Below are positions 1-14,247 of a stretch of DNA of 64,000 nucleotides, piece after piece. Both the position numbers and the translations under genes were made by a program. Location of the stretch: the NCBI RefSeq assembly GCF_013350005.1, contig NZ_JABVWW010000005.1, positions 124,001 through 188,000 on the forward strand. The letters run 5' to 3'. The notes under the pieces were generated by a model. The model was given only the letters and a program-made list of their open reading frames with translations. It ran no database searches and was not told where the DNA came from. The first letter of the stretch is position 1. Each line of letters opens with the position of its first letter. The DNA comes from Methylocystis silviterrae (GTDB lineage Bacteria; Pseudomonadota; Alphaproteobacteria; Rhizobiales; Beijerinckiaceae).

Positions 1-115
1 CATCCCTAAGCTGCATGAGATAACGACCGTCGTCTAGGACAAGCAGCGCAACCGCCGCATCGCCCGGCGTCAGCGGTCCTTCGTTGAGGAAATAGTCTGG
101 GGCGCGGTCACTCAC
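1..115 (-). CDS. Nudix-family hydrolase, N-terminal fragment cut by the window edge
   Basis: Reading the minus strand from a GTG at 115 gives about 38 residues that include VALLVLDDGRYLMQLRD, a typical first beta-strand of a Nudix fold; the Nudix box itself lies outside the window. The GTG overlaps the stop codon of the transketolase C-terminal gene by a few bases, as do most junctions in this operon, which supports the start. Nudix enzymes hydrolyse nucleoside diphosphates linked to another group; here it could act on an NDP-sugar, but that is inference from the cluster. The call rests on a short stretch only. Confidence 0.5.
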   Translation of the reverse strand, partial: MSDRAPDYFLNEGPLTPGDAAVALLVLDDGRYLMQLRD

Positions 116-1028
116 TGAGAATTCGCCGCGTCATATCCTCGATCGAAAGCCCGTGCGCGTCGAGGATGTCGTCATGGCTTCCGTAGCAGTGAATGAACTC
201 ATCCTTAAGCGTGAATGAAAAGAGCCTTGTTCGCGCCCCGATATCGAAGGCGATTGCTTTGACTTGCATTGCAAGACCGCCGGTTGGCGCACATTCCTCG
301 ATAACGACGACAGAGGAAAATCGCGTCAGCGCGTCGGCGACTCCGCTGACGTCGAGCGGCTTCAATGTGTGAACCGAATTGATCGCCACGCTGCGGCCGG
401 CCGCCTCGAGCCGCTCGGCCACGGCCCACGCGCGTTTCATGATCGGACCGTAAGTAAGAATGCAAACGTCCGCGCCCGGACGAATTTGCCGCAGCTTGCC
501 GAAGGTCCAGGGTTGTGGCGCGTTGCTGGTGAAGTCCGGCTCTCCTGCCTTGCCGAGGCGCAGATAGACCGGCCCATGCTCCTGCGTGGCGCACCAGCGC
601 GTCGCCGCTTCGGTTTCGGCCGGGTCGCAAGGCGCGATAACTGTGAGGTTAGGAATCGCGCAGGCGATCGCTACGTCTTCTTGCGCGTGATGCGTCGCGC
701 CGAGCGTCGAATAGGTGAGGCCGCCGCCGATGCCGACCACGGTGACGCATAGATTTTGGTAGCACAGATCGTCTCGCACCATTTCAAACGGGCGGTAGAG
801 CGAGAAGGTCGCAATCGTGTAGGCGAAGGGCCGCAGACCACGCTGCGCCATTCCGGCGGTCATGCCGATCATGATCTGCTCGGCGACTCCGGTATTCACG
901 AAGCGCTGCGGAAATTTCGTGCGAAACTTCTCGATGCTGCCGGCAGGAGAAATGTCCGCTACGACAAGGCACAGGCGCTCGTCCTCCCTGCCCAATTCAT
1001 AGAATGTATCCGCAAATCTATTCCTCAT
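108..1028 (-). CDS. Transketolase, C-terminal subunit (pyrimidine-binding and C-terminal domains)
   Basis: About 306 residues matching the second half of transketolase: pyrimidine-binding domain with the GVAEQIMIGMTAGMA segment that supplies the ThDP-activating Glu, then the transketolase C-terminal domain. Together with the next gene it makes a split transketolase moving two-carbon ketol units between phosphosugars. A longer open frame exists upstream, but it overlaps the N-subunit gene; the ATG at 1028 overlaps that gene's TGA by four bases (ATGA) and starts MRNRFADTF, so I chose it. Its place in a sugar-nucleotide operon with a transaldolase suggests supply of a ketose phosphate for a special sugar rather than central metabolism. 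Split transketolases also occur as ordinary isozymes, so the substrate is not known. Confidence 0.85.
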   Translation of the reverse strand: MRNRFADTFYELGREDERLCLVVADISPAGSIEKFRTKFPQRFVNTGVAEQIMIGMTAGMAQRGLRPFAYTIATFSLYRPFEMVRDDLCYQNLCVTVVGIGGGLTYSTLGATHHAQEDVAIACAIPNLTVIAPCDPAETEAATRWCATQEHGPVYLRLGKAGEPDFTSNAPQPWTFGKLRQIRPGADVCILTYGPIMKRAWAVAERLEAAGRSVAINSVHTLKPLDVSGVADALTRFSSVVVIEECAPTGGLAMQVKAIAFDIGARTRLFSFTLKDEFIHCYGSHDDILDAHGLSIEDMTRRILSE

Positions 1029-1891
1029 GGGGCGTTCTCGATTTCGTTCAACGCCTGCGCATATTCCTCCGAATTGGGCGAACGGTAATGCCAGATCGGA
1101 ACGCTCTCCATGAACGAAACGCCTTTGCCCTTCGTCGTGCGACAAACGATCAACCTCGGGCGAGGGGTTGCGTCATTCGAACAGTCGTTGTCGAGCGCCG
1201 CGAAAATCTCCGCGCTGTCATGTCCAGCTACTTCGGCCGTGCTAAATCCAAAAGCGCGCGCTTTGTCGAGTAGGGGGTAAAAGGCCTTGTGACCCTCGCT
1301 TATACGTTCGAGACCAGAAAAATCATTGTTGTCCATCAGCGCGACAAGATTGGAAAGACCGAGATTTGCGGCGGCCATCATCGCCTCCCAGGTCGAGCCC
1401 TCCTGAAATTCGCCATCCGATAGGACGCAATAGACCCGCGCGTCGCTCCCCTTCAGCTTCTCAGCGAACGCCTGTCCGACCGCGATTCCCAACCCATGTC
1501 CCAATGATCCGGTCGAAGCCGCAATCCCCGGCGTGCCGTAATCGGGATGCGCGCCGAGCCGCCCGCCGGGCTTGCAATAGGCGTCGAGGTCGGCGCGCGA
1601 CAATACGCCTTGCTCCTCGAGCACGACATATTGGATCATGCAGCCGTGACCTTTGGACATCAGAAAGATGTCGCAATACGCACCGTTCGCGTCCCGCCGC
1701 ATCGCGCCGTTATACAGCGCGTCGACGATCTCGACGCAGGAAAAAGCCGGCGCTACATGCAGCGCGGAAACTTGTCGCGAGATGTCCAGAATGCGCCGGC
1801 GGTAGCTGCGGCAGCGTTCCTTTGCCGCAGCGGCGTCGAAATTGTTGCGCCGTCGCTCGTCGCGCTGACATAGCATGAGTCCGTTGGTCAT
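1025..1891 (-). CDS. Transketolase, N-terminal subunit (ThDP pyrophosphate-binding domain)
   Basis: A 288-residue protein equal to the first half of transketolase. The ThDP/Mg2+ motif is visible as SDGEFQEGSTWEAM followed by DNND, and the phosphosugar region contains SKGHG and TGSLGHGLG with the expected His residues. It ends in a 4-base overlap with the C-subunit gene, so the two are translationally coupled and should form a heteromeric enzyme. The gene is far from the promoter of a long operon that also encodes transaldolase, a phosphoheptose-isomerase-like protein and NDP-sugar enzymes, which argues for a biosynthetic role in making a higher sugar phosphate. Confidence 0.87.
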   Translation of the reverse strand: MTNGLMLCQRDERRRNNFDAAAAKERCRSYRRRILDISRQVSALHVAPAFSCVEIVDALYNGAMRRDANGAYCDIFLMSKGHGCMIQYVVLEEQGVLSRADLDAYCKPGGRLGAHPDYGTPGIAASTGSLGHGLGIAVGQAFAEKLKGSDARVYCVLSDGEFQEGSTWEAMMAAANLGLSNLVALMDNNDFSGLERISEGHKAFYPLLDKARAFGFSTAEVAGHDSAEIFAALDNDCSNDATPRPRLIVCRTTKGKGVSFMESVPIWHYRSPNSEEYAQALNEIENAP

Positions 1892-1921
1892 TTCACATTC
1901 CGCCCAACTCGTTGCGGTCGA

Positions 1922-2917
1922 TCATGCCCGCAAAGTGTAATCGCGAGGCGCGCGTTTCAAAGCGGGAAGATTTGCACGCGCCCAGTCGACCATTTCCGAC
2001 AAGCCCTCCGCCCAATCAATGCGGGGCTCCCAACCCACGTCGCGCTTGATCGCTGAAGAGTCGAGCCAGTAGCGAGAGTCCTGCCCGAGTCGATCGCCGC
2101 TGACCTCGCACAATTGTTCGAACGGAACGCCGACAGCCTCCGCGCAAAGCTCGACGACGCGCCGAATCGAAGTTGGCTCGCTCGGACCGACGTTATAGAC
2201 GGCGCCGAGCGGCGCGCCTTCGGCAACGAGCTGGATCGCCCGGCCGAGATCCCGCGCATGAATATAGGACTTTTCCGCCTTGCCGCCGCCATGCAAGGGC
2301 AGTTTCTCGCCGAGCAGCCCCGAGACGATCGCCTTGGGCACGACGCGATGCAAAAGCTGCCCGGGACAATAGGCGTTCGACGGCCTCAAAATATTCATCG
2401 GGAACTTGAGGAATCGCGATATCGACAGAAGATGCATGTCGAAAGCGACCTTGGAGGCGGCGTAAGGGCTCGACGGCTTGATCGGCTCGTCCTCGGTCAC
2501 GGGGCGATCGACGGACCCGTACATTTCCGACGTCCCGATCTGAATGAAACGCTCCAACCAATCCCGTTTCATCAACTCTTCCGTAAGGCGCGCCAACGCC
2601 ATCGAATTCGTCTCAAAAAAGCGCCAGGAGTGCTTCCAGGAGACGGCGCCCTCTCCCTGCGCTGCGAAATTGACAATGATCTCCGGCTTTTCGCGATCGA
2701 GCAGTTCGAGCAGCAGATCGATTTCGTAAGTCACGTGACGGGCATGATATTCGTAACCTTCGCGCTGATCGATATCCAGCGAGAACGCGCGCTCGCGCAG
2801 CGGATTGCGACCGATGCCGATCACTTTTCGCGGGTTCGCGTGATCGAGCAGCCAGAGCGCGGCGTGAATGCCGAAGCTGCCTCCGCCGCCAAGGATTGCA
2901 TAGGTCTTATTCGACAT
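1922..2917 (-). CDS. NAD(P)-dependent sugar-nucleotide epimerase/dehydratase (extended SDR)
   Basis: 331 residues of the extended short-chain dehydrogenase family, closest in layout to dTDP-glucose or GDP-mannose 4,6-dehydratases. The N-terminal Rossmann fingerprint is GGGGSFG, the catalytic Ser/Thr lies in QIGTSEMYG, and the YAASK motif gives the Tyr-Lys pair. The sugar-nucleotide-binding C-terminal half (LRPSNAYCPGQ, SYIHARDLGRAIQLV) is complete. It lies 30 bases downstream of the next gene in the same operon. It probably oxidises C4 of an NDP-sugar and either eliminates water or epimerises; which of the two cannot be read from the sequence. Confidence 0.85.
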   Translation of the reverse strand: MSNKTYAILGGGGSFGIHAALWLLDHANPRKVIGIGRNPLRERAFSLDIDQREGYEYHARHVTYEIDLLLELLDREKPEIIVNFAAQGEGAVSWKHSWRFFETNSMALARLTEELMKRDWLERFIQIGTSEMYGSVDRPVTEDEPIKPSSPYAASKVAFDMHLLSISRFLKFPMNILRPSNAYCPGQLLHRVVPKAIVSGLLGEKLPLHGGGKAEKSYIHARDLGRAIQLVAEGAPLGAVYNVGPSEPTSIRRVVELCAEAVGVPFEQLCEVSGDRLGQDSRYWLDSSAIKRDVGWEPRIDWAEGLSEMVDWARANLPALKRAPRDYTLRA

Positions 2918-2950
2918 GTGTTCGCCTTCGCTTCTTAAGAGAGCGTCACG

Positions 2951-3607
2951 TCACTCGACGATCGTCCAATAATAGTCGCCCGTATAGCCGGCTTCGGCAA
3001 AGACTTCGATCCAGCCCTGCGGATAATCGTGGAATTTCGCCGTCAGCACCCAACTTTCGAAAAGACTCTTTTGCTCGGGCGTACGATACGAATCGACCTG
3101 GACGAATGAGCTTTGGCGAGACACGCGCTGGATCTCACGCAACGCCCTCAATGCGCCGGCGCGGTCGAAATTGTGAATCGTGTTGATGCTCACGACGCAA
3201 TCGAAGCTCTTGTCGGGGAATGGCAGCGCGTCGGCGGAGCCGAGGTGCAGACGGCCCACGACCTCCGGTTCGCAGTGCATGAGGGCGTAACGCGATATGT
3301 CGAGACCGAAGGCCTCCAGCCCCGGCTCCGCGAGCATCAGGTCTTTGACGAGAAAGCCCTTGGCGCATCCGACATCGAGAATTCGCGCGCCCGCCGCGAG
3401 ACCGAAATGAGCGATGATATCCTTCGCGACCGGTCGCCAGCGCCCGTCGTAGCGATAGCCGCCATAGCCATATTCTCGCGGCCCGTCGAAATAGAGCTCC
3501 CCATATTCTCGCGAAAGCGCAATGATCTCGGGCGTCTTCGCTTCGCCTCGCTGCGTGACGTTGCGCCGGGATTTTGGCAGCGCGCGTAACAGATCGACTT
3601 CCGCCAT
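2951..3607 (-). CDS. Class I SAM-dependent methyltransferase
   Basis: 218 residues with SAM-binding motif I ARILDVGCAKGFLVKD and an acidic residue after the second strand (FGLDISRYAL), then SADALPFPDKSFDCVVSINTIHN as motifs II-III, all standard for Rossmann-fold methyltransferases. No membrane segment is visible. The ATG at 3607 is preceded by GGAG nine bases upstream and lies a few bases past the stop of the upstream SDR gene, so the two are co-transcribed. In this context it is likely to methylate a hydroxyl or amino group of the sugar being made, but the acceptor is unknown. Confidence 0.8.
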   Translation of the reverse strand: MAEVDLLRALPKSRRNVTQRGEAKTPEIIALSREYGELYFDGPREYGYGGYRYDGRWRPVAKDIIAHFGLAAGARILDVGCAKGFLVKDLMLAEPGLEAFGLDISRYALMHCEPEVVGRLHLGSADALPFPDKSFDCVVSINTIHNFDRAGALRALREIQRVSRQSSFVQVDSYRTPEQKSLFESWVLTAKFHDYPQGWIEVFAEAGYTGDYYWTIVE

Positions 3608-3610
3608 GGC

Positions 3611-4492
3611 CTATTGCTCCGCGAAAGTTTGTAGCTTCGCGACGGTCGCTATGGTCGGCGCGTAGGCAAAATCAGGGAATGCGGCGCGCGTCGCTTCGAT
3701 GTCAAACGGACGATAGCCGTTATGCGGCATAGGTCCAACGCGCGGCGTCTCTTCGACCGCTACTTTACGCCGCGAGGCGCCGGCTACCGCTTCCGCGAGC
3801 GCGCGGAACGAATGCACCTCGCCGGTCGCTACATTGAGCACGCCGATCGAGCGCCGCGTCAATATCCGGAAAAGGATCTCGGCGAGATCGTCAATCCAAA
3901 CATGGTCGCGTCGCTCCTCACCCGCGCCGAAAACCGCGATATTCTCACCGGCCGCCGCTAGGCGACGAAAACGATTGGGGCCATAGCCGTTGTGCGGATC
4001 CTCAAGACCATAGAGAAGAGTCGGACGCACGATCGTCAACGGCGCCGAGATATCCGAGCGAAATGCGATTTCCCGAGCAAGGTGCATGGCGCCGTGCAGC
4101 GTTCCAGGCGCCGTGGGCGTCTCTTCGTCAATCGGAACCGGCTCGTCGGCGTAGACGGCGTCCGAGCTGATGTTGATCACATGCGATGGAGCCGCATCCT
4201 TTAACGCCGCGACCATCGCGCGCGTCATTTTGACATTCTCGACAAGCATGTCGAGAGAGCGGCAAGGCGCGCGCGCCGCGGCCGCCACGACCGCATCGCC
4301 GGGCTGCAAAATCGCGCGCAATTGCTTCTCGGCGCCGTCGGCAAGAAGATCGATCTGCTGGCGAGTGATCGCCAACACGGGAATTTGCGCGCGCGCGATG
4401 CGGCGACAGAGCGCGCCGCCGACAAATCCACTCCCTCCGATGACAACAACGCGAGCGGGAGCCATCGGAGCGGGAGCGAGATGGCGTAGCAT
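3611..4492 (-). CDS. SDR-type epimerase/dehydratase-like protein lacking the YxxxK catalytic pair
   Basis: 293 residues of the extended SDR (RmlD/GalE-like) fold: GGSGFVGGAL nucleotide-binding fingerprint near residue 20, ISSDAVYADEPVP around residues 108-120, and IVRPTLLYG plus DHVWIDDLAEIL later. Where family members have YGxxKxxxE, this protein reads LHGAMHLAREI, so both the catalytic Tyr and Lys positions are His. It may be an inactive binding partner, or a reductase or epimerase using a different residue. Its ATG overlaps the TAA of the upstream dehydrogenase gene (TAATG), so the genes are coupled. I am sure of the fold, not of the activity. Confidence 0.75.
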   Translation of the reverse strand: MLRHLAPAPMAPARVVVIGGSGFVGGALCRRIARAQIPVLAITRQQIDLLADGAEKQLRAILQPGDAVVAAAARAPCRSLDMLVENVKMTRAMVAALKDAAPSHVINISSDAVYADEPVPIDEETPTAPGTLHGAMHLAREIAFRSDISAPLTIVRPTLLYGLEDPHNGYGPNRFRRLAAAGENIAVFGAGEERRDHVWIDDLAEILFRILTRRSIGVLNVATGEVHSFRALAEAVAGASRRKVAVEETPRVGPMPHNGYRPFDIEATRAAFPDFAYAPTIATVAKLQTFAEQ

Positions 4493-5808
4493 TAGAGGAT
4501 TCCCGCGCTCGGGTTATGGCGAGCCCCGAGCGTGTAGTAATCGAGGCCGGCCGCCGCGGCGGCGCGTGGATCGAGTAGGCGATAGGGATCAATGACAATG
4601 CGACCCCGCATCGTCCGAGCTATTTCCTCAACTCCAACTCGACGATAAGCAGGCCAGGGCGTCAAGATCATCAAGGCGTCGGCGCCTTCTAGCGCCGCGA
4701 GCGGCGAGTCGACGCCCGTCAGTCGCGCGTGAGAAATTGCGCTTGCTTGCACGACGGGATCATGCGCGAAGAATCGAGTTTCTGGCAGACCCATGATCGT
4801 CGCGACGGACGGCGAATTTTTGATCGAATGCGTGTTTTCCTTGTAGGCGAGGCCCCAAACGGCGATCGTCGCCTCGGGCTTTTCACGAAGCAGAGCGGTC
4901 GTGATCGTGCGACGCACCCAATCGCGGCGCCGCCGGCTGTTATCGATCCATGCGCGGACGATGCCCGCATCCGTTTCGAAACGCTCGGACAAAGCAATGA
5001 CCGTCGCAAGGTCACGCTCGAGATTCCCGCCTGCGATCCCCAATCCCGGCGCGAGATAGGCGCTTGGGCCGATGCGGGCGTCGAGCTTCAACGCGGGAAC
5101 GATCTCGGACCACTCGGCCCCTATATTTTCACAAAGTTCCGCCAGCGTGTTGGCGACGCTGATCGAAGACACTAGGCAGCAGTTAATCGCGATCTTGCAG
5201 AGTTCGGCGCTCTCGTAACTCATCGGGATCAACGGACATCCGAATGCAGAGAGCAACGTCTCGTAGCGCGGCTCCAGCGGCGCATCGGAATCCGCGCATC
5301 CGATAATCGTTCGCTCCGGATGCAGCGCGCGCGCCATGGCGCGGCCAAACACGAGCGTTTCGACCTGGTAGTAAAGCCGCTCCGGCGGAACCGCGCGCAC
5401 GCCGCGCGTAAAACCCGGCGGAACCTGGCAAAGAATGACGAGAATCCCATCGGGGCGTAGCGCCTTCGCCACCGCCTCGATAATGCCGACGATCGGGCTA
5501 AGATCGCTTTGGCCCCTATCGTCGGTCGGCACGTCGTATGAAATATAGACGATGTCGCATTCCGCGAGCCGCGAAAGATCGTTGGTGAAGGCTTGCCGAG
5601 CGCCATTGGCGCGCAGCAGATCATCGAGATCCGGCTCCTCGATCGGAGGCTGGCCCGCCGAAAGCCGCTCGATAAGTTGAGAATCGGAATCATAGCCGAT
5701 CGTCTTAAAACCTTTCGCCGCGACGGAGGTCGCGGAGACGATCCCAAGGTGGGTCATGCCGGCGAAGCCGACGATGATATCCGAAGCGTGCTTGATTGCA
5801 GAAGTCAT
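4492..5808 (-). CDS. UDP-glucose/GDP-mannose dehydrogenase-family enzyme without the catalytic Cys
   Basis: 438 residues with all three domains of the UDP-glucose 6-dehydrogenase family: N-terminal Rossmann domain (GFAGMTHLGIVSATSVA), central dimer helix (ELCKIAINCCLVSSISVANT) and C-terminal domain (IAVWGLAYKENTHSIKNSP). The active-site motif normally GGSCFPKD is GGNLERD here, so the nucleophilic Cys needed for four-electron oxidation to a uronic acid is Asn. The enzyme therefore more likely does a two-electron oxidation of a secondary alcohol, or is inactive. A longer open frame extends upstream, but the ATG at 5808 forms an ATGA overlap with the Gfo/Idh gene and matches the family N-terminus. 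Confidence 0.82.
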   Translation of the reverse strand: MTSAIKHASDIIVGFAGMTHLGIVSATSVAAKGFKTIGYDSDSQLIERLSAGQPPIEEPDLDDLLRANGARQAFTNDLSRLAECDIVYISYDVPTDDRGQSDLSPIVGIIEAVAKALRPDGILVILCQVPPGFTRGVRAVPPERLYYQVETLVFGRAMARALHPERTIIGCADSDAPLEPRYETLLSAFGCPLIPMSYESAELCKIAINCCLVSSISVANTLAELCENIGAEWSEIVPALKLDARIGPSAYLAPGLGIAGGNLERDLATVIALSERFETDAGIVRAWIDNSRRRRDWVRRTITTALLREKPEATIAVWGLAYKENTHSIKNSPSVATIMGLPETRFFAHDPVVQASAISHARLTGVDSPLAALEGADALMILTPWPAYRRVGVEEIARTMRGRIVIDPYRLLDPRAAAAAGLDYYTLGARHNPSAGIL

Positions 5809-6755
5809 GCGTCTTGCCTGCGGCGTCGCCGCGAATGTTCGAGAACCACTTCCTCGAGTTGCGCCAACACGTCTCGCAGCCATATGTCGTTTGAGAGGTC
5901 GGTCTTTGCTCGAGATTGGCACATGCCCTTGAAATGCTCGTATTCGAGCTTCCAAGTCGGATCGTCCTGCACGAGCGTGACCGCCTGCTCCGGCGGGCGC
6001 CCCGACGGAAGAATTCGCCGTCGTATCGTAAAAGTTGACGGACCCCATTTACACAGCGATTCAATGTGAGCGCTGCCGTTTTCTGCAATGATATCGCAAG
6101 CGAAGTGATTGCGCCAAGACAGCAGCGTCATTTCGAGCTCGATGCGACAGGCGCCGTCTTCATTGCCGATAATGACGTGATCGGGCGACTTGTTCTCAAA
6201 GCAGTTGACGGCGAGCAGTTTAAATCTCGCATCGATGTCGCCGAACCAGAATCGGCATGTGTCCAGAAGGTGCGAGCCAAGATCCGGAAGCACGCCGGCC
6301 CCGCTATCGCGCCATTCCGAATTTCGTACGAGGCGCGCCGTTCCATTGCCATAGAACATGCGACAGGAATAGATCCGCCCCAGTTCGCCCGACGCAATGA
6401 GGTCGCGCATGCGCACGAAATGCGGTTCGAAGCGATGATTGTAGGCCGTGTAGCAAACGACGTTCGCGGCGCGCGCGAGGCGCCCGAGTTCGTCAAGTTC
6501 CGAGCCCGTACGCGTCCATAGCGGCTTTTCGACCAACGCGTGCTTCCCATTCGCGAGCAGATATTCAAGAATTTCGAATTTCGGCTCGTCTGGTATGCAG
6601 CACAGCGCCGCATCGAAGCTATCGAGCGGGATGTCTTTTATGTCTCGATAATCCGCGGAGGCATTGTAAGGGTCGACAGTCGCGACGAAGTCTTCGCCGG
6701 CGAACGCATGCCTTTTATGTCCCTGCACCCCGAGGCCGACTACGATCACTCTCAT
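5805..6755 (-). CDS. Gfo/Idh/MocA-family oxidoreductase
   Basis: About 316 residues: Rossmann domain starting VIVVGLGVQGHKRHAF, then the family signature VEKPLWT near residue 90 with the conserved Lys, a following YTAYNHRF segment, and the alpha/beta C-terminal domain with FPDLGSHLLDTCRFWFGD-like sequence. These NAD(P) enzymes oxidise or reduce sugar, inositol or sugar-nucleotide hydroxyls. The ATG at 6755 was preferred over an upstream one because it starts directly at the first beta-strand; the gene then overlaps its downstream neighbour by four bases. With the Cys-less dehydrogenase next door it could form an oxidise-then-modify pair on the same NDP-sugar. Confidence 0.83.
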   Translation of the reverse strand: MRVIVVGLGVQGHKRHAFAGEDFVATVDPYNASADYRDIKDIPLDSFDAALCCIPDEPKFEILEYLLANGKHALVEKPLWTRTGSELDELGRLARAANVVCYTAYNHRFEPHFVRMRDLIASGELGRIYSCRMFYGNGTARLVRNSEWRDSGAGVLPDLGSHLLDTCRFWFGDIDARFKLLAVNCFENKSPDHVIIGNEDGACRIELEMTLLSWRNHFACDIIAENGSAHIESLCKWGPSTFTIRRRILPSGRPPEQAVTLVQDDPTWKLEYEHFKGMCQSRAKTDLSNDIWLRDVLAQLEEVVLEHSRRRRRQDA

Positions 6756-6759
6756 GGCG

Positions 6760-8313
6760 CTACACGTAATTCGTTTGTTTTTCCACCGCATCAAGCTTTT
6801 TCAAAATTTGCTTGGGCGCGATGGGCGCGTTGCCGTCGCATTCGCATTCGCAAGCGGCCGCGAGCAGACCGATGATGGTCGCCTGCGTCGGATCCTTCGT
6901 GGCGAGCATGGCGAGCGTCGAATATGCGAGGAGCGCATCGCCGGCGCCGACGGGGTCGACGAGATTCTCGACAAAACTGTCGAGCACGAAAAAGCTATCC
7001 AGCGATTCGTGATCTGTGCTTTGGCAGACGAGCACCCCGCGCTGCCCGAGCTTAAGGATCAGCAATTTACATTGCGCCTCATCGAATATCGCGGAGGCCA
7101 GAGGTCGAATGCCTGAGTCCTGATCGGCCAGCGCAAATCGCGCCTCGCGCTCATTCGGCGTAATCAGATCGAAACCGCGAAATTCAGTGATGTTTCCCCA
7201 GCGGCTCGCGACCTGGCTGTCGGCGACGCGATACGCGTTTGCCGGAATCGCCTCGATGAAATCGGGTATCGTGCGGCGATTGAAGATACCGTGACGGAAA
7301 TCGGCATAGATAACCGCATCAGCGCCGCTGTTGCGCACCGTATCGGTCATCTTGTTGCACATGGCGTCCGTAATTGAGTTGTTGTCGAGCGTGTCGACTT
7401 TCAAAAGCCGATAGCCGCCGACGACGATTGCGTTCTTGTTTACGGTGGGACGACCGCGCTCCGTCACGACAGAGACACTGACGCCGGCCTGCTGAAGGTC
7501 GTTGACAACAAATTCGGCGTAGGCGTCATCGCCCAACACGGTGCAAAAAGAAACGTCCGCGCCGGCGGCGCGGCAGTGCTTGGCGACGATCGCCGCTCCT
7601 CCTGCATAGTCCGTTTTCGACTCAAACAGAACAGACAAGGTCGGGGTCTTGGTCTGGCCTCCGATCATGACGCAATTGGTGTAGCTGTCGACGATCGTGT
7701 CGCCGACCACATGAACGCGATAGGCGGAAAGCGCATTTATCGCGCGGCGCAGGTCTTCGAAGGAAATTCCTTTTCTCTCCATGATGATTTGGAGTTTTTC
7801 GAAGCGAAGCTTGGGAGCTTCGAGTTCAATGAGCTTCGAAGAGGAATAAACGATGTCGCCGGGCGTGAAGACGATCTCGCCGCCATAGGCGCGCACGGCT
7901 TCCGCTTCCTCCTCGGTCTTCGGACGCATCCCGGTTGTTGTGTATTCATATCCTTTTGCGAAGAGGTCAGGCTGAATGAGTTTCAGATTGGCGAGCGGCG
8001 TCGCATTGATGTCCACGACCACATAGTCGACCATCTCGAGAGCGGCGAGATTGAGCGCGCGCAAGTCCTGCGGCACATGCGGCCGATGAAGCCCCTTAGT
8101 GATGTGCGCGTCGGCTGTTATGCTCGTAATCAGAATATCGGCTTTGCCCTTGGCGTAAGCGAGATGCCGAATGTGGCCCGGATGAACCACATCGAAAACG
8201 CCGTGGCACATTATTGCGCGCTTTTCGCGCGGCATAGGACCGAGGATTGTGCGCAACTCTTCCGGCGTCTTGATTTTGCGGCCATAGAGTCGATTGAGTG
8301 AGCTATTGGGCAT
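6760..8313 (-). CDS. Bifunctional nucleotidyltransferase (N-terminal) and PfkB-type sugar kinase (C-terminal), HldE-like with reversed order
   Basis: A 517-residue two-domain protein. The first ~180 residues are a cytidylyltransferase/RfaE2-type domain with CHGVFDVVHPGHIRHL (HxGH motif near residue 45). The rest is a ribokinase/PfkB domain with GGAAIVAKHC, then DPVGAGDALLA (catalytic Asp, anion hole) near residue 455. E. coli HldE carries the same activities, phosphorylating heptose 7-phosphate at C1 and then making ADP-heptose, but with the kinase first; here the order is swapped. It would thus phosphorylate C1 of a ketose-derived aldose phosphate and transfer NMP after GmhB-type dephosphorylation. 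ATG at 8313 is assumed; an in-frame TTG lies six bases upstream. Confidence 0.8.
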   Translation of the reverse strand: MPNSSLNRLYGRKIKTPEELRTILGPMPREKRAIMCHGVFDVVHPGHIRHLAYAKGKADILITSITADAHITKGLHRPHVPQDLRALNLAALEMVDYVVVDINATPLANLKLIQPDLFAKGYEYTTTGMRPKTEEEAEAVRAYGGEIVFTPGDIVYSSSKLIELEAPKLRFEKLQIIMERKGISFEDLRRAINALSAYRVHVVGDTIVDSYTNCVMIGGQTKTPTLSVLFESKTDYAGGAAIVAKHCRAAGADVSFCTVLGDDAYAEFVVNDLQQAGVSVSVVTERGRPTVNKNAIVVGGYRLLKVDTLDNNSITDAMCNKMTDTVRNSGADAVIYADFRHGIFNRRTIPDFIEAIPANAYRVADSQVASRWGNITEFRGFDLITPNEREARFALADQDSGIRPLASAIFDEAQCKLLILKLGQRGVLVCQSTDHESLDSFFVLDSFVENLVDPVGAGDALLAYSTLAMLATKDPTQATIIGLLAAACECECDGNAPIAPKQILKKLDAVEKQTNYV

Positions 8314-8410
8314 GAGCAACTCTGCGAGAAAGCGTCCTCGGTTGGAGTGAAGGCTTCGGTTGGGTCCCTACTCGTCGCGAGTCTTGTATCAAACTACTGC
8401 GCGTGCGGAC

Positions 8411-9421
8411 TCATATCCGAGCCGCGTCGCCTCCGAGAAATTCGAACCACGTCTTCGTCGCCTTTGCGATCGACTCGGGATCCCAAAGCGGAGCGTCCTT
8501 CCAAAGATGTATCTGCTGCATCATCCTCGGCGCCCCCTCTTCAAACGGAACTTTCGGCCGCCAATCGAGAAGCGTAGAAATCTTCGTTATGTCCGCCCAG
8601 GTGCAATCGGGCTCGCCCGGCCGCTTAGGCACATAGACCACGTCCCCGCCGAGCAGGGACACGAGTTGATTGATTGATTTCGGAGCGCCGGCGCCGACAT
8701 TAAAGCGCTCGCCGACGATATCCGTTTCGGCGGCGGCAAGAAACGCTTCGGCTACGTCCGTTGCGTAAATGAAGTCGCGTGATTGCGACCCGTCGCCGAC
8801 CACAGTGTACGGCTTGCCCGCGAGTTTCTGGCGAAAGAAGACGCCAAAGACGGCGCCATATGCGCCCGTGGTGCGCACGCGCAAGCCGTATGCGTTAAAT
8901 ATGCAAATCGAATTGACAGGGAGCCGGTAGACGTTTCCCCAGTGAAACACCGCTTGCTCGCCCTGATATTTTGAGAGAGCGTAAGGATATTGCGGCGCGA
9001 TCGGGTGATCCTCCCGCGTCGGCGTCGCGGCGAGGCCATAGCAGGATGAAGATGCCGCATAGACGAATTTTTTCACCTTTGCGGCGCGCGCGCATTCGAG
9101 CGTACGGACCGTTCCCTGGACATTGATGTCCATGTAATCGATCGGGCGCTCGATTGACGGAACGATGTCGCCAATGCCTGCAAAATGAAAAACATAGCGG
9201 CAATCCGAGAAGATCGGATCACCGGGCGCCAGCGTGCGTATATCTCTCCAATGACAGGCGAGGTCCGAGTTCTGCGCATGATGCGCAAGATTCGCTTCGC
9301 GCCCGCCCGACAAGTCGTCGATCACGCGAACGCAAAATCCGCGATCCAGCAGCAGGTCGACCATATGGCTCCCGATGAAGCCCGCGCCGCCTGTCACCAC
9401 AGCAATAGGTTTGCCGTTCAT
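8411..9421 (-). CDS. NAD-dependent sugar-nucleotide epimerase/dehydratase (extended SDR)
   Basis: 336 residues: GGAGFIGSHMVDLLL at the N-terminus, VYAASSSCYG and PYALSKYQGE giving Ser and the Tyr-Lys pair, and a complete C-terminal substrate domain (YGLRVRTTGAYG, DFIYATDVAEAFLAA). This layout is typical of UDP-glucose 4-epimerase or UDP-glucuronate 4-epimerase relatives. The open frame runs further upstream, but that part overlaps the next SDR gene; the ATG at 9421 makes an ATGA overlap and starts six residues before the first strand. A gap of about 97 bases separates it from the downstream kinase fusion gene. Confidence 0.85.
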   Translation of the reverse strand: MNGKPIAVVTGGAGFIGSHMVDLLLDRGFCVRVIDDLSGGREANLAHHAQNSDLACHWRDIRTLAPGDPIFSDCRYVFHFAGIGDIVPSIERPIDYMDINVQGTVRTLECARAAKVKKFVYAASSSCYGLAATPTREDHPIAPQYPYALSKYQGEQAVFHWGNVYRLPVNSICIFNAYGLRVRTTGAYGAVFGVFFRQKLAGKPYTVVGDGSQSRDFIYATDVAEAFLAAAETDIVGERFNVGAGAPKSINQLVSLLGGDVVYVPKRPGEPDCTWADITKISTLLDWRPKVPFEEGAPRMMQQIHLWKDAPLWDPESIAKATKTWFEFLGGDAARI

Positions 9422-10431
9422 GCTGCTTTCAATCTTTGCAGCCGCTTGACGTTGAAATAGGAGTCGTCGTCGAAACTGTTCGGCAAGCGATTTTCTCGGA
9501 ATGCGACGCAGAGTTCGCGCACCGCGTCCTCGATCGTGCGCCGCGGCTGAAAGCCCAGCGCGCGCGCGATCTTGCCCGAATTGATGTGATACGAGCGCAG
9601 ATCGTCGCTCGGCGTCGTCACAATTTCGAGATCGCCTCGTTCGGGATATTCTTCGAGCACGACCTTGCGAACCAGTTCGGCGATTTGCATCAGAGAGAGA
9701 TTTTGATATCCGACGTTGAAGATCTCGCCTTGGATCTTTTCCGCAGGCGCCTGAAGAAACATCTGCGCCGCGTCGACATAGTCCTGAATATGCAGGTTTG
9801 GTCGTAATTGTGAGCCGCCGAAAACCGTGATCCTGTTCTTGTTCACGGCGTGATTGGTGAGAATGTTTACGGAGAGATCCAGTCGCTGGCGCGGCGCGTA
9901 GCCGCACACGGTCGCCGGACGGAAGGTGACGCCCGTGAAACCGTCATCTATGTGTCTGTTGAGCAGCGGCTCGCACATTCCCTTGTATTTGTTGTAAAGC
10001 GTCAGGGGCACGAGCGGATGGTCTTCCGTCACCTCGGGTTGGTCGGAAACGCCATAAACCGAAGATGAAGACGCATAGATGAAGCGCTTGACGCCCGCGT
10101 TCTTGGCCGTGAGCACCATTGGCTCGAAGGCCTCCAAATTCACCGAGGTCGAGAGTCGTTCATCGAGTTCGAAGCTGGCGTCATTGGAGATGCAGGCGAG
10201 GCTCAAGAAAGCATCGTGGCCGGCGACCGCAGCGGCGAGCTTTGCTCTGTCGCGTATGTCACCCTGAACCACCGTTAGGTTTGGGTCGTCTTTCGGCAGG
10301 AATTCGCAACCGAAATACATGACGTCATACACGGTCACCTTGTAACCAGAGCGAAGGAGCTGTGGAACGAGGCGGCTCCCGCAATAGCCGGCGCCGCCCG
10401 TAATGAAAACACGTTCGAACAGTCGCGTCAT
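9418..10431 (-). CDS. NAD-dependent sugar-nucleotide epimerase/dehydratase (extended SDR)
   Basis: 337 residues: VFITGGAGYCGSRLVPQLL fingerprint, YASSSSVYGVSDQP and LYNKYKGMCE with the Tyr-Lys pair, FRPATVCGYAPRQRLD and LHIQDYVDAAQMFL in the substrate half. It is complete and distinct from its SDR neighbours. The ATG at 10431 overlaps the transaldolase TGA (ATGA); the upstream in-frame extension only shadows the transaldolase gene. Four different SDR proteins in one operon imply several successive changes on an NDP-sugar rather than one epimerisation. Its exact reaction cannot be told from the sequence. Confidence 0.85.
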   Translation of the reverse strand: MTRLFERVFITGGAGYCGSRLVPQLLRSGYKVTVYDVMYFGCEFLPKDDPNLTVVQGDIRDRAKLAAAVAGHDAFLSLACISNDASFELDERLSTSVNLEAFEPMVLTAKNAGVKRFIYASSSSVYGVSDQPEVTEDHPLVPLTLYNKYKGMCEPLLNRHIDDGFTGVTFRPATVCGYAPRQRLDLSVNILTNHAVNKNRITVFGGSQLRPNLHIQDYVDAAQMFLQAPAEKIQGEIFNVGYQNLSLMQIAELVRKVVLEEYPERGDLEIVTTPSDDLRSYHINSGKIARALGFQPRRTIEDAVRELCVAFRENRLPNSFDDDSYFNVKRLQRLKAA

Positions 10432-11201
10432 CGAACATCCTCGCGTATGTCGCTTACGCCGCCGACCTCGGCGGCCAATTTTCGCTGCGCAACGTCGATT
10501 TCGAATCCCGAAGCCGTCGCGTCGCGATAGAACATTTGTACCGTCTCGAGAGAAAACTGCGTGAGATCCTTTCCAACCAACTCTAGCTTGGAAAGAATGC
10601 CGGGCGTGGCGGTGATGATATGGCAGCCCGCCTCCTGCGCGTGAAAAACGTTTAGCAACTCGCGCGGGCTCGCCCAAAGCAGCTCCGCTCGCGGGCGCGA
10701 CGCAAGCGCCGCGCGGCAGGCCTTCATGTGAGGAACAGGATCAACGCCGGTATCGGCGATTCTCCCGGCAAAGACCGAAATAATCGCCGGCGTTTCGGGC
10801 GCGAGCGCCGCGGCGACGTCGCGAACCTGCTGCACGGTCATGATCGCGGTGACGTTGAGCGTCACGCCTTCGTTGGAAAGCGCGCTCAGAATAGGGCCGG
10901 TAAACTCGCCCTTCGTATTAACAACTGGAATCTTCACGTTGACGTTTGGGCCCCAACCGGCAATGACGCGCGCCTGGCGCGCCATCTCGGAGAGGTCGTC
11001 GGCGAATACTTCGAATGAGACGGGACGATCCGGAATCGCCTCGAGCACCTTGCGCGCGAATTTTTCGTAATCGGCCACGCCGGCTTGGCGCATCAGCGTC
11101 GGATTCGTCGTGAAGCCGACGATCCTCGGATCGCGATACATGGAAATCATTTCCCCAAGATCGGCGCCGTCGGCAAAGAGCTTAATGAAAATTTTCGGCA
11201 T
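10428..11201 (-). CDS. Transaldolase-family protein
   Basis: 257 residues of the short (TalC/MipB-like) transaldolase class, a TIM barrel: KLFADGADLGEM at strand 1, GFTTNPTLMRQ with the conserved Asn-Pro, VNVKIPVVNTKG with the Schiff-base Lys near residue 90, and LNVTAIMTVQQV and ISVFAGRIADTG in later strands. Such enzymes move a three-carbon dihydroxyacetone unit between sugar phosphates. A copy inside a GmhA/GmhB/HldE-like cluster suggests it makes the C7 or C8 ketose phosphate that the isomerase and kinase then use, as LmbR does in lincosamide octose synthesis. That role is inference. Confidence 0.88.
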   Translation of the reverse strand: MPKIFIKLFADGADLGEMISMYRDPRIVGFTTNPTLMRQAGVADYEKFARKVLEAIPDRPVSFEVFADDLSEMARQARVIAGWGPNVNVKIPVVNTKGEFTGPILSALSNEGVTLNVTAIMTVQQVRDVAAALAPETPAIISVFAGRIADTGVDPVPHMKACRAALASRPRAELLWASPRELLNVFHAQEAGCHIITATPGILSKLELVGKDLTQFSLETVQMFYRDATASGFEIDVAQRKLAAEVGGVSDIREDVR

Positions 11202-11210
11202 GAGCGACTT

Positions 11211-11756
11211 TCAGCTGTCTGCTTGTGACAATGATAGGATCCAGTCGGCGGCCTCGCAGAACGAGCCGACAATTCTATCCGGGCGTTCGGGGGGCTGTTC
11301 CGCCGTATAGCCAAGATCTATGAACACGGTGCGGCACCCAGCCGCAGCGCCGGCTTCTATGTCGCTCGCTCGATCGCCTACCATGAAGCTCTCCTTGAGA
11401 TCGAGCTTGATTTCGCGCGCAGCTTCCAACAGCATTCCAGGCTGCGGCTTGCGGCAGGCGCACTGGCTCGTATGGCAGCAGATCTTTATCGCATCAAGAG
11501 GCATTGCGTGGCGAAGTCGGAGGCTCATTTCGTCGACGATCTCACGCGCAATTCGGCCCGCCCCCACATCTGGCTGGTTTGAAACGACGACGGTGAAGAA
11601 GCCCGCTTCCTTCAACCTCGCAACGCACCTCGGCGCGTCCGGATAAATGGCGAATTCCTCGAGAGTCGTCGGTGCGAAACTGCGGCCTTCGCGAAACTGC
11701 GGCACCACGAGAACGCCGTCACGATCCAAAAAAACGGCGCGTCGCGGCCCGAACAT
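11211..11756 (-). CDS. gmhB: D,D-heptose 1,7-bisphosphate phosphatase-like HAD hydrolase
   Basis: 181 residues of the GmhB/HisB-N branch of the HAD superfamily. The nucleophile motif FLDRDGVL is at residues 9-16, VVSNQPDVG provides motif II, CRKPQPGM motif III, and VGDRASDIEAGAAAG motif IV. The CCHTSQCACRKP stretch supplies the Cys residues for the structural zinc seen in GmhB. It would remove the terminal phosphate from a sugar 1,7- (or 1,8-) bisphosphate after C1 phosphorylation by the kinase fusion. AGGAG six bases before the ATG supports the start, and ten bases separate it from the SIS gene upstream. Confidence 0.85.
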   Translation of the reverse strand: MFGPRRAVFLDRDGVLVVPQFREGRSFAPTTLEEFAIYPDAPRCVARLKEAGFFTVVVSNQPDVGAGRIAREIVDEMSLRLRHAMPLDAIKICCHTSQCACRKPQPGMLLEAAREIKLDLKESFMVGDRASDIEAGAAAGCRTVFIDLGYTAEQPPERPDRIVGSFCEAADWILSLSQADS

Positions 11757-11765
11757 CCTTGGCTC

Positions 11766-12371
11766 CTACCACTTCGTCCCACGCGACTGAAGAGCTGGAT
11801 GAGACACGAGGCAATGCCAGACGACTGCCTGAAACGCTTCGGAAAGCGGCGTCACGCGGCCGGCGTCGACCTGCGGAATCACGACCGCCACGTCGCCATG
11901 GGCGCTGGCGTGGCCGTCGGCGCGACCCACGATCGCAAAAACGCGGGCGCCACGCTGCTTTGCAAGATCGATGGCCTTCACAAGATTGACGCTGACATTG
12001 CGGGCCGCGTTCCCGCCACCCACTGAAAAGACGAGGATTGCGTCGCCGCTGGATAGCCGGCTGACCTCAAGCCATCCTGTGAAGATTGTATCCCATCCCT
12101 CATCATTGGCCCGAGCCGTCAGCTCCGAAACATTATCGGTCGGCGCATAGGCTTCGATCCCGCACAATTTTCGAAAATCATTCGCCGCATGACCACAATT
12201 TCCCGCGCTGCCCCCGACGCCCAATAGAAACAACCGTCCATCGCGCTCACGCAATTGACTCAACTCTTGAGCGAGCCGCTCGACCACGCCGGTGTCAAGA
12301 AGTCCTGCAACCTCTCGCACCTGCTCCATAAAATTGATGACATGCGACAGGGCAGCGCTCCAGTTTAACAA
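11766..12371 (-). CDS. gmhA: SIS-domain phosphosugar isomerase, phosphoheptose isomerase-like
   Basis: 201 residues with a single SIS domain: LFLLGVGGSAGNCGHAANDF for phosphosugar binding, ILVFSVGGGNAARNVS for the second phosphate loop, and a C-terminal helix LSEAFQAVVWHCLV like the catalytic helix of GmhA. GmhA converts sedoheptulose 7-phosphate to an aldose 7-phosphate, the first step toward ADP- or GDP-heptose; octulose homologues (LmbN) exist. The start is uncertain: the frame opens with TTG at 12371, and the first ATG at 12329 would shorten the N-terminal helix that the family needs. It is the first gene of the minus-strand operon. Confidence 0.8.
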   Translation of the reverse strand: MLNWSAALSHVINFMEQVREVAGLLDTGVVERLAQELSQLRERDGRLFLLGVGGSAGNCGHAANDFRKLCGIEAYAPTDNVSELTARANDEGWDTIFTGWLEVSRLSSGDAILVFSVGGGNAARNVSVNLVKAIDLAKQRGARVFAIVGRADGHASAHGDVAVVIPQVDAGRVTPLSEAFQAVVWHCLVSHPALQSRGTKW

Positions 12372-12705
12372 GCAAAAGCTGGTTAGAATATCGCCCTGTG
12401 AGAGTCAATCCACGCGACGCGTCGAATCGGTAGCGACTGAACTTGATTTTAACCACGCAATCACTTGCTGCAAGAGCAAACCAGGGAAAGCCGACGCCCG
12501 AATGCGGCCTATGTCGAGCGGGTCAACCAGGTCATTGGCGACTTGGCGCCACCGAAATGCTAATCTGTCTTTCGCCCCGAAAATACAACATGCGTCCTAT
12601 AAATGGTTGAGCTGAGATTTAATCCACAGATCGCGCTCGACTGGACGACGAAAACCAACAAACCGAGGCGCGGGGCGCACAAGAACGCGAAGCGGGTGAG
12701 CAAAG
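12372..12705. promoter_or_regulatory. Divergent intergenic region with the presumed promoter of the higher-sugar operon
   Basis: About 334 bases without a supported gene separate the minus-strand sugar operon from the plus-strand oxidase gene, so promoters for both should lie here. The stretch is slightly more AT-rich than its surroundings near 12560-12620. No convincing -35/-10 pair, riboswitch or strong palindrome could be assigned by eye. Confidence 0.4.
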
Positions 12706-13830: not shown

Positions 13831-14247
13831 TGTGGAACTCACAACGCGACGCCCGCAAGTCCAGTCGTCGATATGGCTTGTGGCGCTTGTGGCTGGAGAA
13901 CGAAAAGAGGCTTTAGGGTCCAGACTCATAACAGTCTCATCGTTGGACATGCGACGCGCGACGCGCCTCAAGCAGTCTGCTTTCTTCCTCGGTGAGGCGC
14001 CGCCTGCTCGTGTCGCCATCGCGTTCGCCGCGATTTGCGCGGCGCAATGGTGCAGCCCTCACGCAATGGGCAGATTGGGTGGCTGGTGGGATGAGGCCAG
14101 AAGTGAGAAAGTGTGAGCGCTAGGCGTCGATCTTTTGCGCCGCCCCAAAAACTCGGCCCAATGACATGAGAATTGTCGCGCGCCTCAGGTGGCTGGCTGC
14201 GAGCAGCACTCAAGTCGATCTGACAAATCTCGCACAAAGGGAATGAC
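13831..14247. other. 417-bp intergenic region without a convincing gene
   Basis: Open frames exist on both strands, but their predicted peptides (for example a plus-strand frame at 13817-14116) show no recognisable domain and overlap the end of the oxidase gene. The segment TTTAGGGTCCAGACTCATAA near 13910-13930 looks like the kind of terminal repeat seen at insertion sequences, so this may be a decayed mobile-element remnant; that is a guess. The promoter of the downstream transporter gene should lie in the last 100 bases. Confidence 0.3.

What the first reader, a model, noticed from the sequence alone, without database searches (positions are those of the whole stretch)
1..12371. Complete-looking operon for an NDP-activated higher-carbon (C7/C8 or larger) sugar
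Seen: SIS isomerase, GmhB-like phosphatase, transaldolase, split transketolase, nucleotidyltransferase-PfkB kinase fusion, four SDRs, a Gfo/Idh enzyme, a UGDH-like enzyme, a methyltransferase and a Nudix start on one strand, most joined by ATGA overlaps. Known: the GmhA-HldE-GmhB logic makes ADP/GDP-heptose, and the lincosamide octose pathway uses transaldolase (LmbR), isomerase (LmbN), kinase, phosphatase and nucleotidyltransferase, followed by epimerase, UGDH-like and Gfo/Idh enzymes. Inference: carrying its own transaldolase and transketolase suggests this locus builds its own C7-C8 (or longer) ketose phosphate and then heavily remodels the NDP-sugar, probably for an unusual surface glycan.
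Basis: partly seen in the sequence, partly recalled or inferred. Interest (0 to 1): 0.75.

Follow-up and report, generated by a model that had tools for sequence, protein, structure and literature searches.

The report
Operon for a long, branched sugar
A bacterium, probably a methane oxidiser, carries an 18-gene operon, found in closely similar form in many bacterial phyla, that appears to build an extra-long activated sugar and to add a two-carbon branch with an enzyme that is swapped between relatives like a plug-in part.

Summary
Its core (SIS isomerase, HAD phosphatase, transaldolase, two SDRs, reversed nucleotidyltransferase-PfkB fusion, Gfo/Idh, UGDH-like enzyme, third SDR, methyltransferase) recurs in the same order in loci from many phyla, and partly in phages. 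It is not core heptose synthesis: 25 of 29 sampled alphaproteobacteria with the fusion also have an HldE match. The UGDH-like enzyme has Asn for the catalytic Cys in 93 of 93 sequences, so a two-electron oxidation is expected, as for a sugar with carbons beyond C6. One inference needs changing. In a same-genus operon 97% identical over 12 kb, the split transketolase (with Nudix and one methyltransferase) is replaced by a pyruvate-dehydrogenase-E1-like pair. Of 77 distinct loci with enough flank, 66 have a thiamine enzyme: transketolase 40, E1 22, acetolactate-synthase-like 8; transketolase and E1 occur together once. These three classes are the ones known or proposed to branch keto-sugars. Best reading: a dedicated C8 NDP-sugar is remodelled, then receives a C2 branch from an exchangeable late cassette. 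Carbon number, nucleotide, step order and glycan are inferred; no product is known.

The parts
11766..12371 (-). SIS-domain sugar-phosphate isomerase (GmhA-like), first gene of the operon, TTG start
   Evidence: PF13580; distant GmhA hits 49.7 bits, cut-off 209; solved phosphoheptose isomerases at 1e-6 to 1e-9; H61, D65, E178, H186 in 78 of 78
11211..11756 (-). HAD phosphatase, GmhB-like (HAD)
   Evidence: GmhB model 101 bits against cut-off 178; DxD invariant
10428..11201 (-). Transaldolase of the TIGR02134 family (TAL)
   Evidence: 337.5 bits against cut-off 281.95; Schiff-base-type Lys K90 in 97 of 97 (role recalled)
9418..10431 (-). SDRd, NDP-sugar dehydrogenase/epimerase
   Evidence: best solved relative 6vo6, 128.6 bits, next 85.3; Y145, K149 in 103 of 103
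8411..9421 (-). SDRc, GalE-like epimerase
   Evidence: Y150, K154 in 102 of 102
6760..8313 (-). Fusion protein NTK: HldC-like nucleotidyltransferase (N-terminal) and PfkB kinase (C-terminal), reverse of the HldE order
   Evidence: PF01467 and PF00294; rfaE domains I and II below cut-off; at least 551 relatives, near and distant, in 84,980 species genomes, 80 kept
5805..6755 (-). Gfo/Idh/MocA oxidoreductase (GFO)
   Evidence: E89-K90-P91 in at least 101 of 102 and H175 in 102 of 102
4492..5808 (-). UGDH-like dehydrogenase with Asn for the catalytic Cys (UGD)
   Evidence: TIGR03026 over cut-off; Asn in 93 of 93; aligned solved UGDHs have Cys
3611..4492 (-). SDRb, SDR with His at the Lys position of YxxxK
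   Evidence: His 72 of 72; Tyr position His 63, Tyr 9
2951..3607 (-). Methyltransferase MTa
   Evidence: Methyltransf_11; present in 55 of 63 loci with both flanks
1922..2917 (-). SDRa, RmlB/4,6-dehydratase-like
   Evidence: TIGR01181 167 bits, cut-off 365; TSE(L/M)YG Glu 39 of 39
1025..1891 (-). Split transketolase, N-terminal chain (TKN); part of the exchangeable cassette
   Evidence: PF00456; best solved relative 6yak split transketolase N chain, 162 bits; missing in L227
108..1028 (-). Split transketolase, C-terminal chain (TKC); part of the exchangeable cassette
   Evidence: PF02779, PF02780; best solved relative 6yaj, 158.7 bits; absent from the whole G532 genome at E<=1e-30
1..115 (-). 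Start of the Nudix gene; rest at L003 17585-18115, followed by MTb (16425-17588), RmlD-like RmlD2 (15496-16428), MTc (14796-15491) and TIGR04372 glycosyltransferase (13458-14687) outside the window
   Evidence: TIGR04372 218.5 bits against cut-off 45

Best explanation
The operon makes an NDP-activated higher-carbon, C-branched sugar, probably for a surface glycan, in two stages. Stage 1, the conserved core: the dedicated transaldolase adds a three-carbon unit to a pentose phosphate, giving an octulose phosphate; the SIS enzyme isomerises it to the aldose; the PfkB domain phosphorylates C1; the HAD phosphatase removes the terminal phosphate; the HldC-like domain adds a nucleotide (ADP is my guess). 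SDRc, SDRd, the Cys-less UGDH-like enzyme (two-electron oxidation of a secondary alcohol), Gfo/Idh and SDRb then remodel the NDP-sugar and MTa methylates it. Stage 2, the exchangeable cassette: a keto form, perhaps made by SDRa, is the acceptor for a thiamine-diphosphate enzyme that adds a two-carbon branch (hydroxyacetyl by the split transketolase here; acetyl by E1 alpha/beta or acetolactate-synthase-like enzymes in relatives). The RmlD-like enzyme reduces the branch, further methyltransferases act, and the TIGR04372 glycosyltransferase uses the product. Shown by computation: gene content, co-conservation, active-site changes, cassette replacement and exclusivity, separateness from core heptose. 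Inferred: C8 length, nucleotide, order of steps, late action of the thiamine enzyme, destination.
For: Co-conserved block in many phyla. The fusion and TIGR02134 co-occur: 28 of 29 against 14 of 356. Separate from core heptose: 25 of 29 also have HldE. UGD Cys to Asn 93 of 93 with Lys, Asn and Asp kept. SDRd nearest in sequence to solved 6vo6 (recalled as the GDP-heptose dehydrogenase Cj1427). Cassette replacement in L227. Of 77 distinct loci with >=7.5 kb downstream, transketolase only 38, E1 only 19, ALS-like only 5, mixed 4, none 11; transketolase x E1 p=6.3e-8; at least 17 switches on the fusion-protein tree. The three classes match those known or proposed to branch keto-sugars (PMC12247030 passages and sections 7, 8). 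TKN keeps four His shared with the solved split transketolase while TKC has lost the His and Asp of that enzyme in 41 of 41. 11 loci with a distant fusion paralogue lack TAL, UGD, GFO and SDRb (0 of 11) yet 9 of 11 have a thiamine enzyme.
Against: No product or enzyme assay. 11 of 77 covered loci show none of the three thiamine enzymes within the DNA held. SDRa, the proposed maker of the keto acceptor, is in 32 of 63 loci with both flanks and is not significantly tied to thiamine enzymes (p=0.12). SIS, HAD and TAL are missing from the held DNA in 19, 16 and 10 of those 63 loci. RmlD2 at >=38% identity was seen in only 3 of 116 loci before removal of duplicates, so the proposed branch reductase is not conserved. 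A TAL and SIS lie about 15 kb from the distant fusion paralogue in G260, so the link of TAL to one fusion clade is not perfect. Loci are related and chosen by similarity, so p-values are optimistic. C8 rests on analogy.
Confidence: 0.5

Rival explanations
1. One reading: transaldolase and transketolase act together, early, to build a C7-C8 or longer ketose phosphate, which is then activated and remodelled.
For: Both are pentose-phosphate-type enzymes in one operon; the transketolase pair keeps the four His it shares with the solved split transketolase; transketolase in 40 of 77 covered loci.
Against: It is replaced by an E1 pair in a 97%-identical operon with no copy of TKC elsewhere in that genome at E<=1e-30; 37 of 77 covered loci lack it; TKC has lost two residues present in the solved split transketolase; the genome has a full-length transketolase elsewhere.
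Confidence: 0.13
2. Heptose version: the core makes an NDP-heptose from sedoheptulose 7-phosphate, the transaldolase only tops up sedoheptulose 7-phosphate, and the thiamine enzyme makes a C9 branched sugar.
For: SIS, kinase, phosphatase and nucleotidyltransferase are all distant members of the GmhA/HldE/GmhB families; SDRd is nearest to 6vo6, recalled as a heptose enzyme; 10 of 63 loci show no TAL in the DNA held.
Against: TIGR02134 is tied to the fusion (28 of 29) although the window genome has another transaldolase and transketolase; the four activation enzymes all score below the cut-offs of the heptose models.
Confidence: 0.22
3. The sugar goes to a secreted small molecule or a lipid rather than to a surface polysaccharide.
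For: Pfam scans show no polysaccharide cluster next to it within the 20 window proteins and 10 upstream proteins scanned; related sugars occur in antibiotics (lincomycin, PMC12945683 passages; paulomycin, PMC4753412 passages).
Against: A TIGR04372-family glycosyltransferase ends the operon; no polyketide or peptide assembly-line genes among the proteins scanned; ABC-2 export genes beside one relative, L087, with like genes in 4-6 of 97 loci.
Confidence: 0.12

Closest known systems
Lincosamide GDP-octose pathway (LmbR/N/P/K/O/M/L/Z)
   Same: Transaldolase plus SIS isomerase at the front, HAD phosphatase, SDR epimerase, UGDH-like and Gfo/Idh enzymes on the NDP-octose. LmbM, LmbL and CcbZ (LmbZ homologue) acting on GDP-octose is stated in PMC12945683 (passages); the rest is recalled.
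   Different: Kinase is PfkB and nucleotidyltransferase HldC-like, fused, where I recall a GHMP kinase and a GMP transferase; no aminotransferase in the window operon; a thiamine-enzyme cassette is added. Lmb sequences were not compared here.
ADP-heptose route (GmhA, HldE, GmhB, HldD)
   Same: Isomerase, C1 kinase, terminal phosphatase and nucleotidyltransferase of the same broad families.
   Different: All below the curated cut-offs; domain order of the fusion reversed; own transaldolase; coexists with HldE in 25 of 29 genomes.
ThDP-branched sugars: yersiniose (YerE), avilamycin/paulomycin/aldgamycin type (E1 pairs), miharamycin/amipurimycin (split transketolases, proposed)
   Same: The same three thiamine-enzyme classes beside NDP-sugar genes and a reductase.
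   Different: There the acceptor is a hexose derivative and each pathway has one class; here the core looks like a higher-carbon sugar pathway, and the classes replace one another in a single conserved operon.
Bradyrhizose of photosynthetic Bradyrhizobium
   Same: Octose plus C2 would give ten carbons, and bradyrhizose is a ten-carbon sugar (PMC9912281 passages); its candidate 11-gene cluster has a 4,6-dehydratase-like gdh (PMC4743980 passages and section 15).
   Different: That cluster could not be fetched or compared; no ring-closing step is assigned here.
Sister clusters with a distant fusion paralogue (Azospirillum oryzae L008, Solidesulfovibrio L007 and others)
   Same: Fusion protein, SDRc/SDRd-like genes in several, thiamine enzyme in 9 of 11.
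   Different: No TAL, UGD, GFO or SDRb in 11 of 11 held loci (one locus is only 3.9 kb).

Membership tests
ADP-heptose core pathway | Isomerase, kinase and nucleotidyltransferase over the curated GmhA and HldE cut-offs | tested here: not met
   gmhA 49.7 of 209; rfaE I 119 of 345; rfaE II 88 of 181.5; GmhB (NF006506) 101 of 178 bits
ADP-heptose core pathway | Kinase-then-nucleotidyltransferase order of HldE | tested here: not met
   Nucleotidyltransferase 38-164, PfkB 203-499 of the ORF
ADP-heptose core pathway | HldD epimerase | tested here: not met
   No match over cut-off in the whole genome
Lincosamide-type octose pathway | Dedicated transaldolase and SIS isomerase | tested here: met
   TIGR02134 over cut-off; SIS_2; tree with LmbR/LmbN not made
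Lincosamide-type octose pathway | GHMP kinase and GMP transferase (recalled features) | tested here: not met
   PfkB and HldC-like domains instead
Lincosamide-type octose pathway | UGDH-like and Gfo/Idh pair | tested here: met
   Adjacent in the window; each in 62 of 63 loci with both flanks
Lincosamide-type octose pathway | C8 product | not testable with these tools
   Needs enzyme assays
UDP-glucose 6-dehydrogenase | Catalytic Cys for four-electron oxidation | tested here: not met
   Asn in 93 of 93; Cys in three aligned solved enzymes
ThDP-branched keto-sugars | Thiamine enzyme of a keto-sugar-accepting class in an NDP-sugar operon | tested here: met
   66 of 77 covered loci; classes
ThDP-branched keto-sugars | Dehydratase giving a 4-keto acceptor | tested here: inconclusive
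   SDRa has the TSE motif (39 of 39; meaning recalled) but is in only 32 of 63 loci
ThDP-branched keto-sugars | Tertiary alcohol in the product | not testable with these tools
   No structure known
Bradyrhizose cluster | Same genes beside gdh in photosynthetic Bradyrhizobium | not tested

The most novel reading that the evidence does not exclude
A phylum-spanning, horizontally moving pathway makes ten-carbon (octose plus C2) branched surface sugars, with the branching thiamine enzyme as a plug-in cassette (transketolase, E1 or acetolactate-synthase type) that diversifies the end product on a constant core. Ten-carbon O-antigen sugars such as bradyrhizose, whose genes are not established, would be products of this kind, and the split-transketolase version would be a transketolase acting on a nucleotide keto-sugar in a surface glycan. 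Phages have taken up parts of it.
Probability: 0.3. Interest if true: 0.85.

Novelty: new variant of a known kind. Interest (0 to 1): 0.68.

Why it matters
Higher-carbon and branched sugars are among the oddest parts of bacterial surfaces, and for some of them (bradyrhizose, for example) the genes were called unknown when a candidate cluster was found (PMC4743980). This operon is a conserved gene set seen here in 107 distinct non-viral loci whose parts score as distant heptose and pentose-phosphate enzymes. The cassette replacement between near-identical operons is a ready-made experiment: two close relatives that differ in the thiamine enzyme and its neighbours can be compared sugar by sugar. 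It also offers biocatalysis three interchangeable thiamine enzymes that may act on one sugar acceptor, including split transketolases, for which the 2025 review says experimental evidence of ketone acceptance is still needed (PMC12247030).

Tried and rejected
Core-heptose role: rejected, because an HldE match coexists in 25 of 29 genomes and 30 of 39 genus members have neither HldE nor the fusion at E<=1e-30. Early transketolase: demoted after the cassette replacement. Chance clustering: rejected. RNA control: no Rfam match at gathering threshold in 1-20000; no sigma-70-like site in 11700-12800 (other promoter types not covered). Bradyrhizose identity: not tested; G506 (8.0 Mb, one contig, same order), which I wondered might be a Bradyrhizobium, has only the distant paralogue cluster, about 596 kb from its HldE, and its identity is unknown. 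SDRa, MTc and DegTb tied to thiamine enzymes: not significant; Nudix and DegTa go with transketolase (p=1.6e-4, 1.5e-4, uncorrected). Counts: 116 loci with a fusion of >=50% identity before removal of 5 duplicates, 111 after; 34 of the 111 were left out of the 77 for having under 7.5 kb downstream. Structure prediction and fold search were not used.

Literature: searches (open-access library only). None of the titles or passages I saw describes this operon; one search listed 15 of 40 papers. Papers seen: PMC4743980 passages and section 15; PMC12247030 passages and sections 7 and 8; PMC12945683, PMC10680097, PMC9912281, PMC9042403, PMC5706390 and PMC4753412 passages only. Others were seen as search listings only.

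Full report
What is there. The window is G000:C55:124001-188000 of a 3.85-Mb genome in 64 contigs. The genome has two AMO-family (PF02461) genes, so it oxidises methane or ammonia; I take it for an alphaproteobacterial methanotroph such as Methylocystis, a name that no tool gave. On the minus strand 13 genes run from 12371 to 108, and five more continue below the window start. In order: SIS isomerase, HAD phosphatase (HAD), TIGR02134 transaldolase (TAL), SDRd, SDRc, nucleotidyltransferase-PfkB fusion (NTK), Gfo/Idh (GFO), UGDH-like (UGD), SDRb, methyltransferase MTa, SDRa, split transketolase (TKN, TKC); then, outside the window, Nudix, MTb, RmlD-like reductase (RmlD2), MTc and a TIGR04372 glycosyltransferase. 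In the window 4 of 12 junctions are 4-bp overlaps, one is a 1-bp overlap, six are gaps of 3-33 bp and one is 97 bp. The operon is 59.1% G+C against 63.3% for the rest of the window and 64.3% on the other side, which fits an acquired block.

Conservation. Of 149 genomes of the family, 3 matched NTK at E<=1e-20: the window's own and two distant ones at 30% identity (this sample held few genus members, and five further genus members with the operon appeared). Of 385 alphaproteobacteria, 29 had an NTK of at least 50% identity, some of them partial, and 42 had TIGR02134 at E<=1e-40; 28 of the 29 had both, p=5e-31. The best 80, at 56-73% identity, come from records titled Alpha-, Beta-, Gamma- and Deltaproteobacteria, Nitrospirae, Acidobacteria, Verrucomicrobia, Gemmatales, Chlamydiae, Acidimicrobiaceae, SAR202 and Rokubacteria. 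Many are metagenome bins, so single assignments may be wrong. Gene order is largely the same. After removal of 5 duplicates there were 111 loci, 107 of them non-viral. SDRc is immediately before NTK in 96 of 107 and GFO immediately after in 98 of 105 (the denominators are loci with at least 1.2 kb on that side). In 63 non-viral loci with at least 6.5 kb upstream and 7.5 kb downstream the counts are SIS 44, HAD 47, TAL 53, SDRd 58, SDRc 58, GFO 62, UGD 62, SDRb 57, MTa 55, SDRa 32, TKN 33, TKC 33 and Nudix 15 (hits of at least 38% identity). These are nearest relatives, so conservation is over-estimated for the family as a whole.

Not the core heptose route. The window genome has no HldE kinase domain over cut-off, its best hit being NTK itself at 120.7 bits of 345, and no HldD over cut-off. 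But 30 of 39 genus members have no match to the HldE kinase model at E<=1e-30, which NTK also reaches; 4 have HldE over cut-off plus one partial; and 6 carry the operon (window, L227-L231), two of them (G542, G553) together with HldE. In the class, 205 of 385 have an HldE match at E<=1e-60, including 25 of the 29 with NTK (lists matched by hand). So the operon is additional to core heptose synthesis, not in place of it.

Active sites (unless stated). In UGD the residue at the catalytic cysteine is Asn in 93 of 93 (N259 in the 435-residue reading, N262 from the start at 5808), with Lys202, Asn206 and Asp263 kept in 93 of 93. The three solved UGDHs aligned have Cys. The expected chemistry is one two-electron oxidation; if C6 is still the site, C6 should be a secondary alcohol, as in a sugar longer than six carbons (inference). 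SDRb has His for the SDR Lys in 72 of 72 and His or Tyr (63 and 9) at the Tyr. SDRa keeps TSE(L/M)YG, Glu in 39 of 39, which I recall from 4,6-dehydratases. SDRd is nearest to solved chain 6vo6 (128.6 bits, next 85.3), which I recall as Cj1427, the Campylobacter GDP-heptose 4-dehydrogenase discussed in PMC10680097 (passages); the code is not printed in the text found there. TKN keeps H45, H82, H115 and H268, all matched by His in the solved split transketolase 6yak. TKC has Gly105 and Leu113 in 41 of 41 where 6yaj has His and Asp; I recall the equivalents (E. coli H461, D469) as substrate-binding residues.

The exchangeable cassette. L227, from a same-genus genome (G532), matches the operon region at 97.35% nucleotide identity over 12,009 bp, ending 5 bp before the SDRa stop codon. 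TKN, TKC, Nudix and MTb (3.5 kb) are then missing and an unrelated pair (2.1 kb) takes their place; similarity resumes 18 bp into RmlD2 at 90.7% over 2,140 bp. RmlD2 differs most in its first 120 residues (71 of 120 identical, against 174 of 190 after that), so part of it may have changed with the cassette. The pair is E1 alpha (PF00676; 280 bits to a PDH E1 alpha model, below its cut-off of 394) and E1 beta (259 bits, cut-off 321). TKC has no match in the rest of that genome at E<=1e-30, and this E1 alpha was found in no other of 39 genus members at E<=1e-60. L228 and L229 keep the transketolase version at 92-99% protein identity. Of 77 distinct loci with at least 7.5 kb downstream: transketolase only 38, E1 only 19, acetolactate-synthase-like (ALS) only 5, E1+ALS 2, transketolase+ALS 1, transketolase+E1 1 (L166), none 11. 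Transketolase and E1 avoid each other, p=6.3e-8; loci are related, so this is optimistic. On a tree of 82 fusion proteins (70 labelled, 78 different) at least 17 switches of class are needed, 14 for transketolase and E1 alone (quick tree, 23 of 75 inner branches open, mixed loci labelled by one class).

Why this suggests late C-branching. A review (PMC12247030, passages and sections 7 and 8) names three of nine thiamine-enzyme superfamilies as known to use ketones: decarboxylases (YerE-like, LPS sugars), E1-type alpha-KADH2 (antibiotic sugars, C2 branches) and transketolases, the last still unproven (split-gene enzymes of miharamycin and amipurimycin clusters; 13 sequences, all from Streptomycetes). 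Members of these three superfamilies alternate here; whether the ALS-like ones are YerE-like was not tested. An E1 pair is not expected to replace a transketolase in making a ketose phosphate, but it could replace it in adding a C2 unit to a keto NDP-sugar (inference). A reductase for such a branch has a precedent in Pau7 of paulomycin, an aldo-keto reductase (PMC4753412 passages). Against this, RmlD2 is not conserved (3 of 116 loci) and SDRa is present in only half of the loci.

Why an octose is the first guess. A dedicated transaldolase is unnecessary for sedoheptulose 7-phosphate, and the genome has a second transaldolase and a full transketolase elsewhere. Eleven loci with a distant NTK paralogue (27-34% identity) have no TAL, UGD, GFO or SDRb above 60 bits (0 of 11 each) but have TKN or E1 in 9 of 11 (L005 is only 3.9 kb). 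TAL, UGD, GFO and SDRb thus go together. One case is less clean: in G260 a TAL, SIS and SDRc group lies about 15 kb from such a paralogue. In lincosamide synthesis LmbM, LmbL and CcbZ act on GDP-octose (PMC12945683 passages); the transaldolase step there is recalled.

Limits. Nothing here shows a product. The nucleotide is guessed from the nearest solved relative of the NT domain (5x9q, 60.7 bits, named only putative cytidylyltransferase). Surface use rests on the terminal glycosyltransferase and on ABC-2 genes near some relatives. The link to bradyrhizose, called a ten-carbon bicyclic monosaccharide in the passage seen (PMC9912281), with an 11-gene candidate cluster (PMC4743980), is an untested idea.

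Noticed in passing
L196, L198 (same fusion gene as L199), L200; also L197, L201 (IMG/VR contigs): Fusion proteins at 50-57% identity sit in viral contigs with parts of the sugar operon (L200: TAL, SDRc, NTK, UGD, MTa, SIS, E1-beta-like and DegT-like genes). L196 and L200 carry terminase genes, L200 a head-tail adaptor, L198 a tape-measure protein and ribonucleotide reductase, so phages seem to carry versions of this pathway.
   Followed up: partly
L008, L107, L108, L110, L111, L232, L007: A sister cluster with a distant fusion paralogue, SDRc/SDRd-like genes in several and a thiamine enzyme, but no transaldolase, UGDH-like, Gfo/Idh or SDRb gene; possibly a related, shorter branched sugar.
   Followed up: partly
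window 3611-4492: SDRb is an SDR-fold protein whose YxxxK Lys is His in 72 of 72 and whose Tyr is His in 63 of 72 sequences; its chemistry is unclear.
   Followed up: partly
window 19977-21887: One ORF joins PP2C-type phosphatase hits to an alpha/beta-hydrolase domain, an unusual combination.
   Followed up: no
window 12706-13830: FAD-dependent (DAO) oxidoreductase divergent from the operon; DAO genes were also seen near the operon in L227, L228 and L229 (about 31% identity to the L131 protein) and in L131.
   Followed up: no
phages OR844993 and MG543995: Two Staphylococcus phage records have a stretch 48-51% identical to this transaldolase.
   Followed up: no
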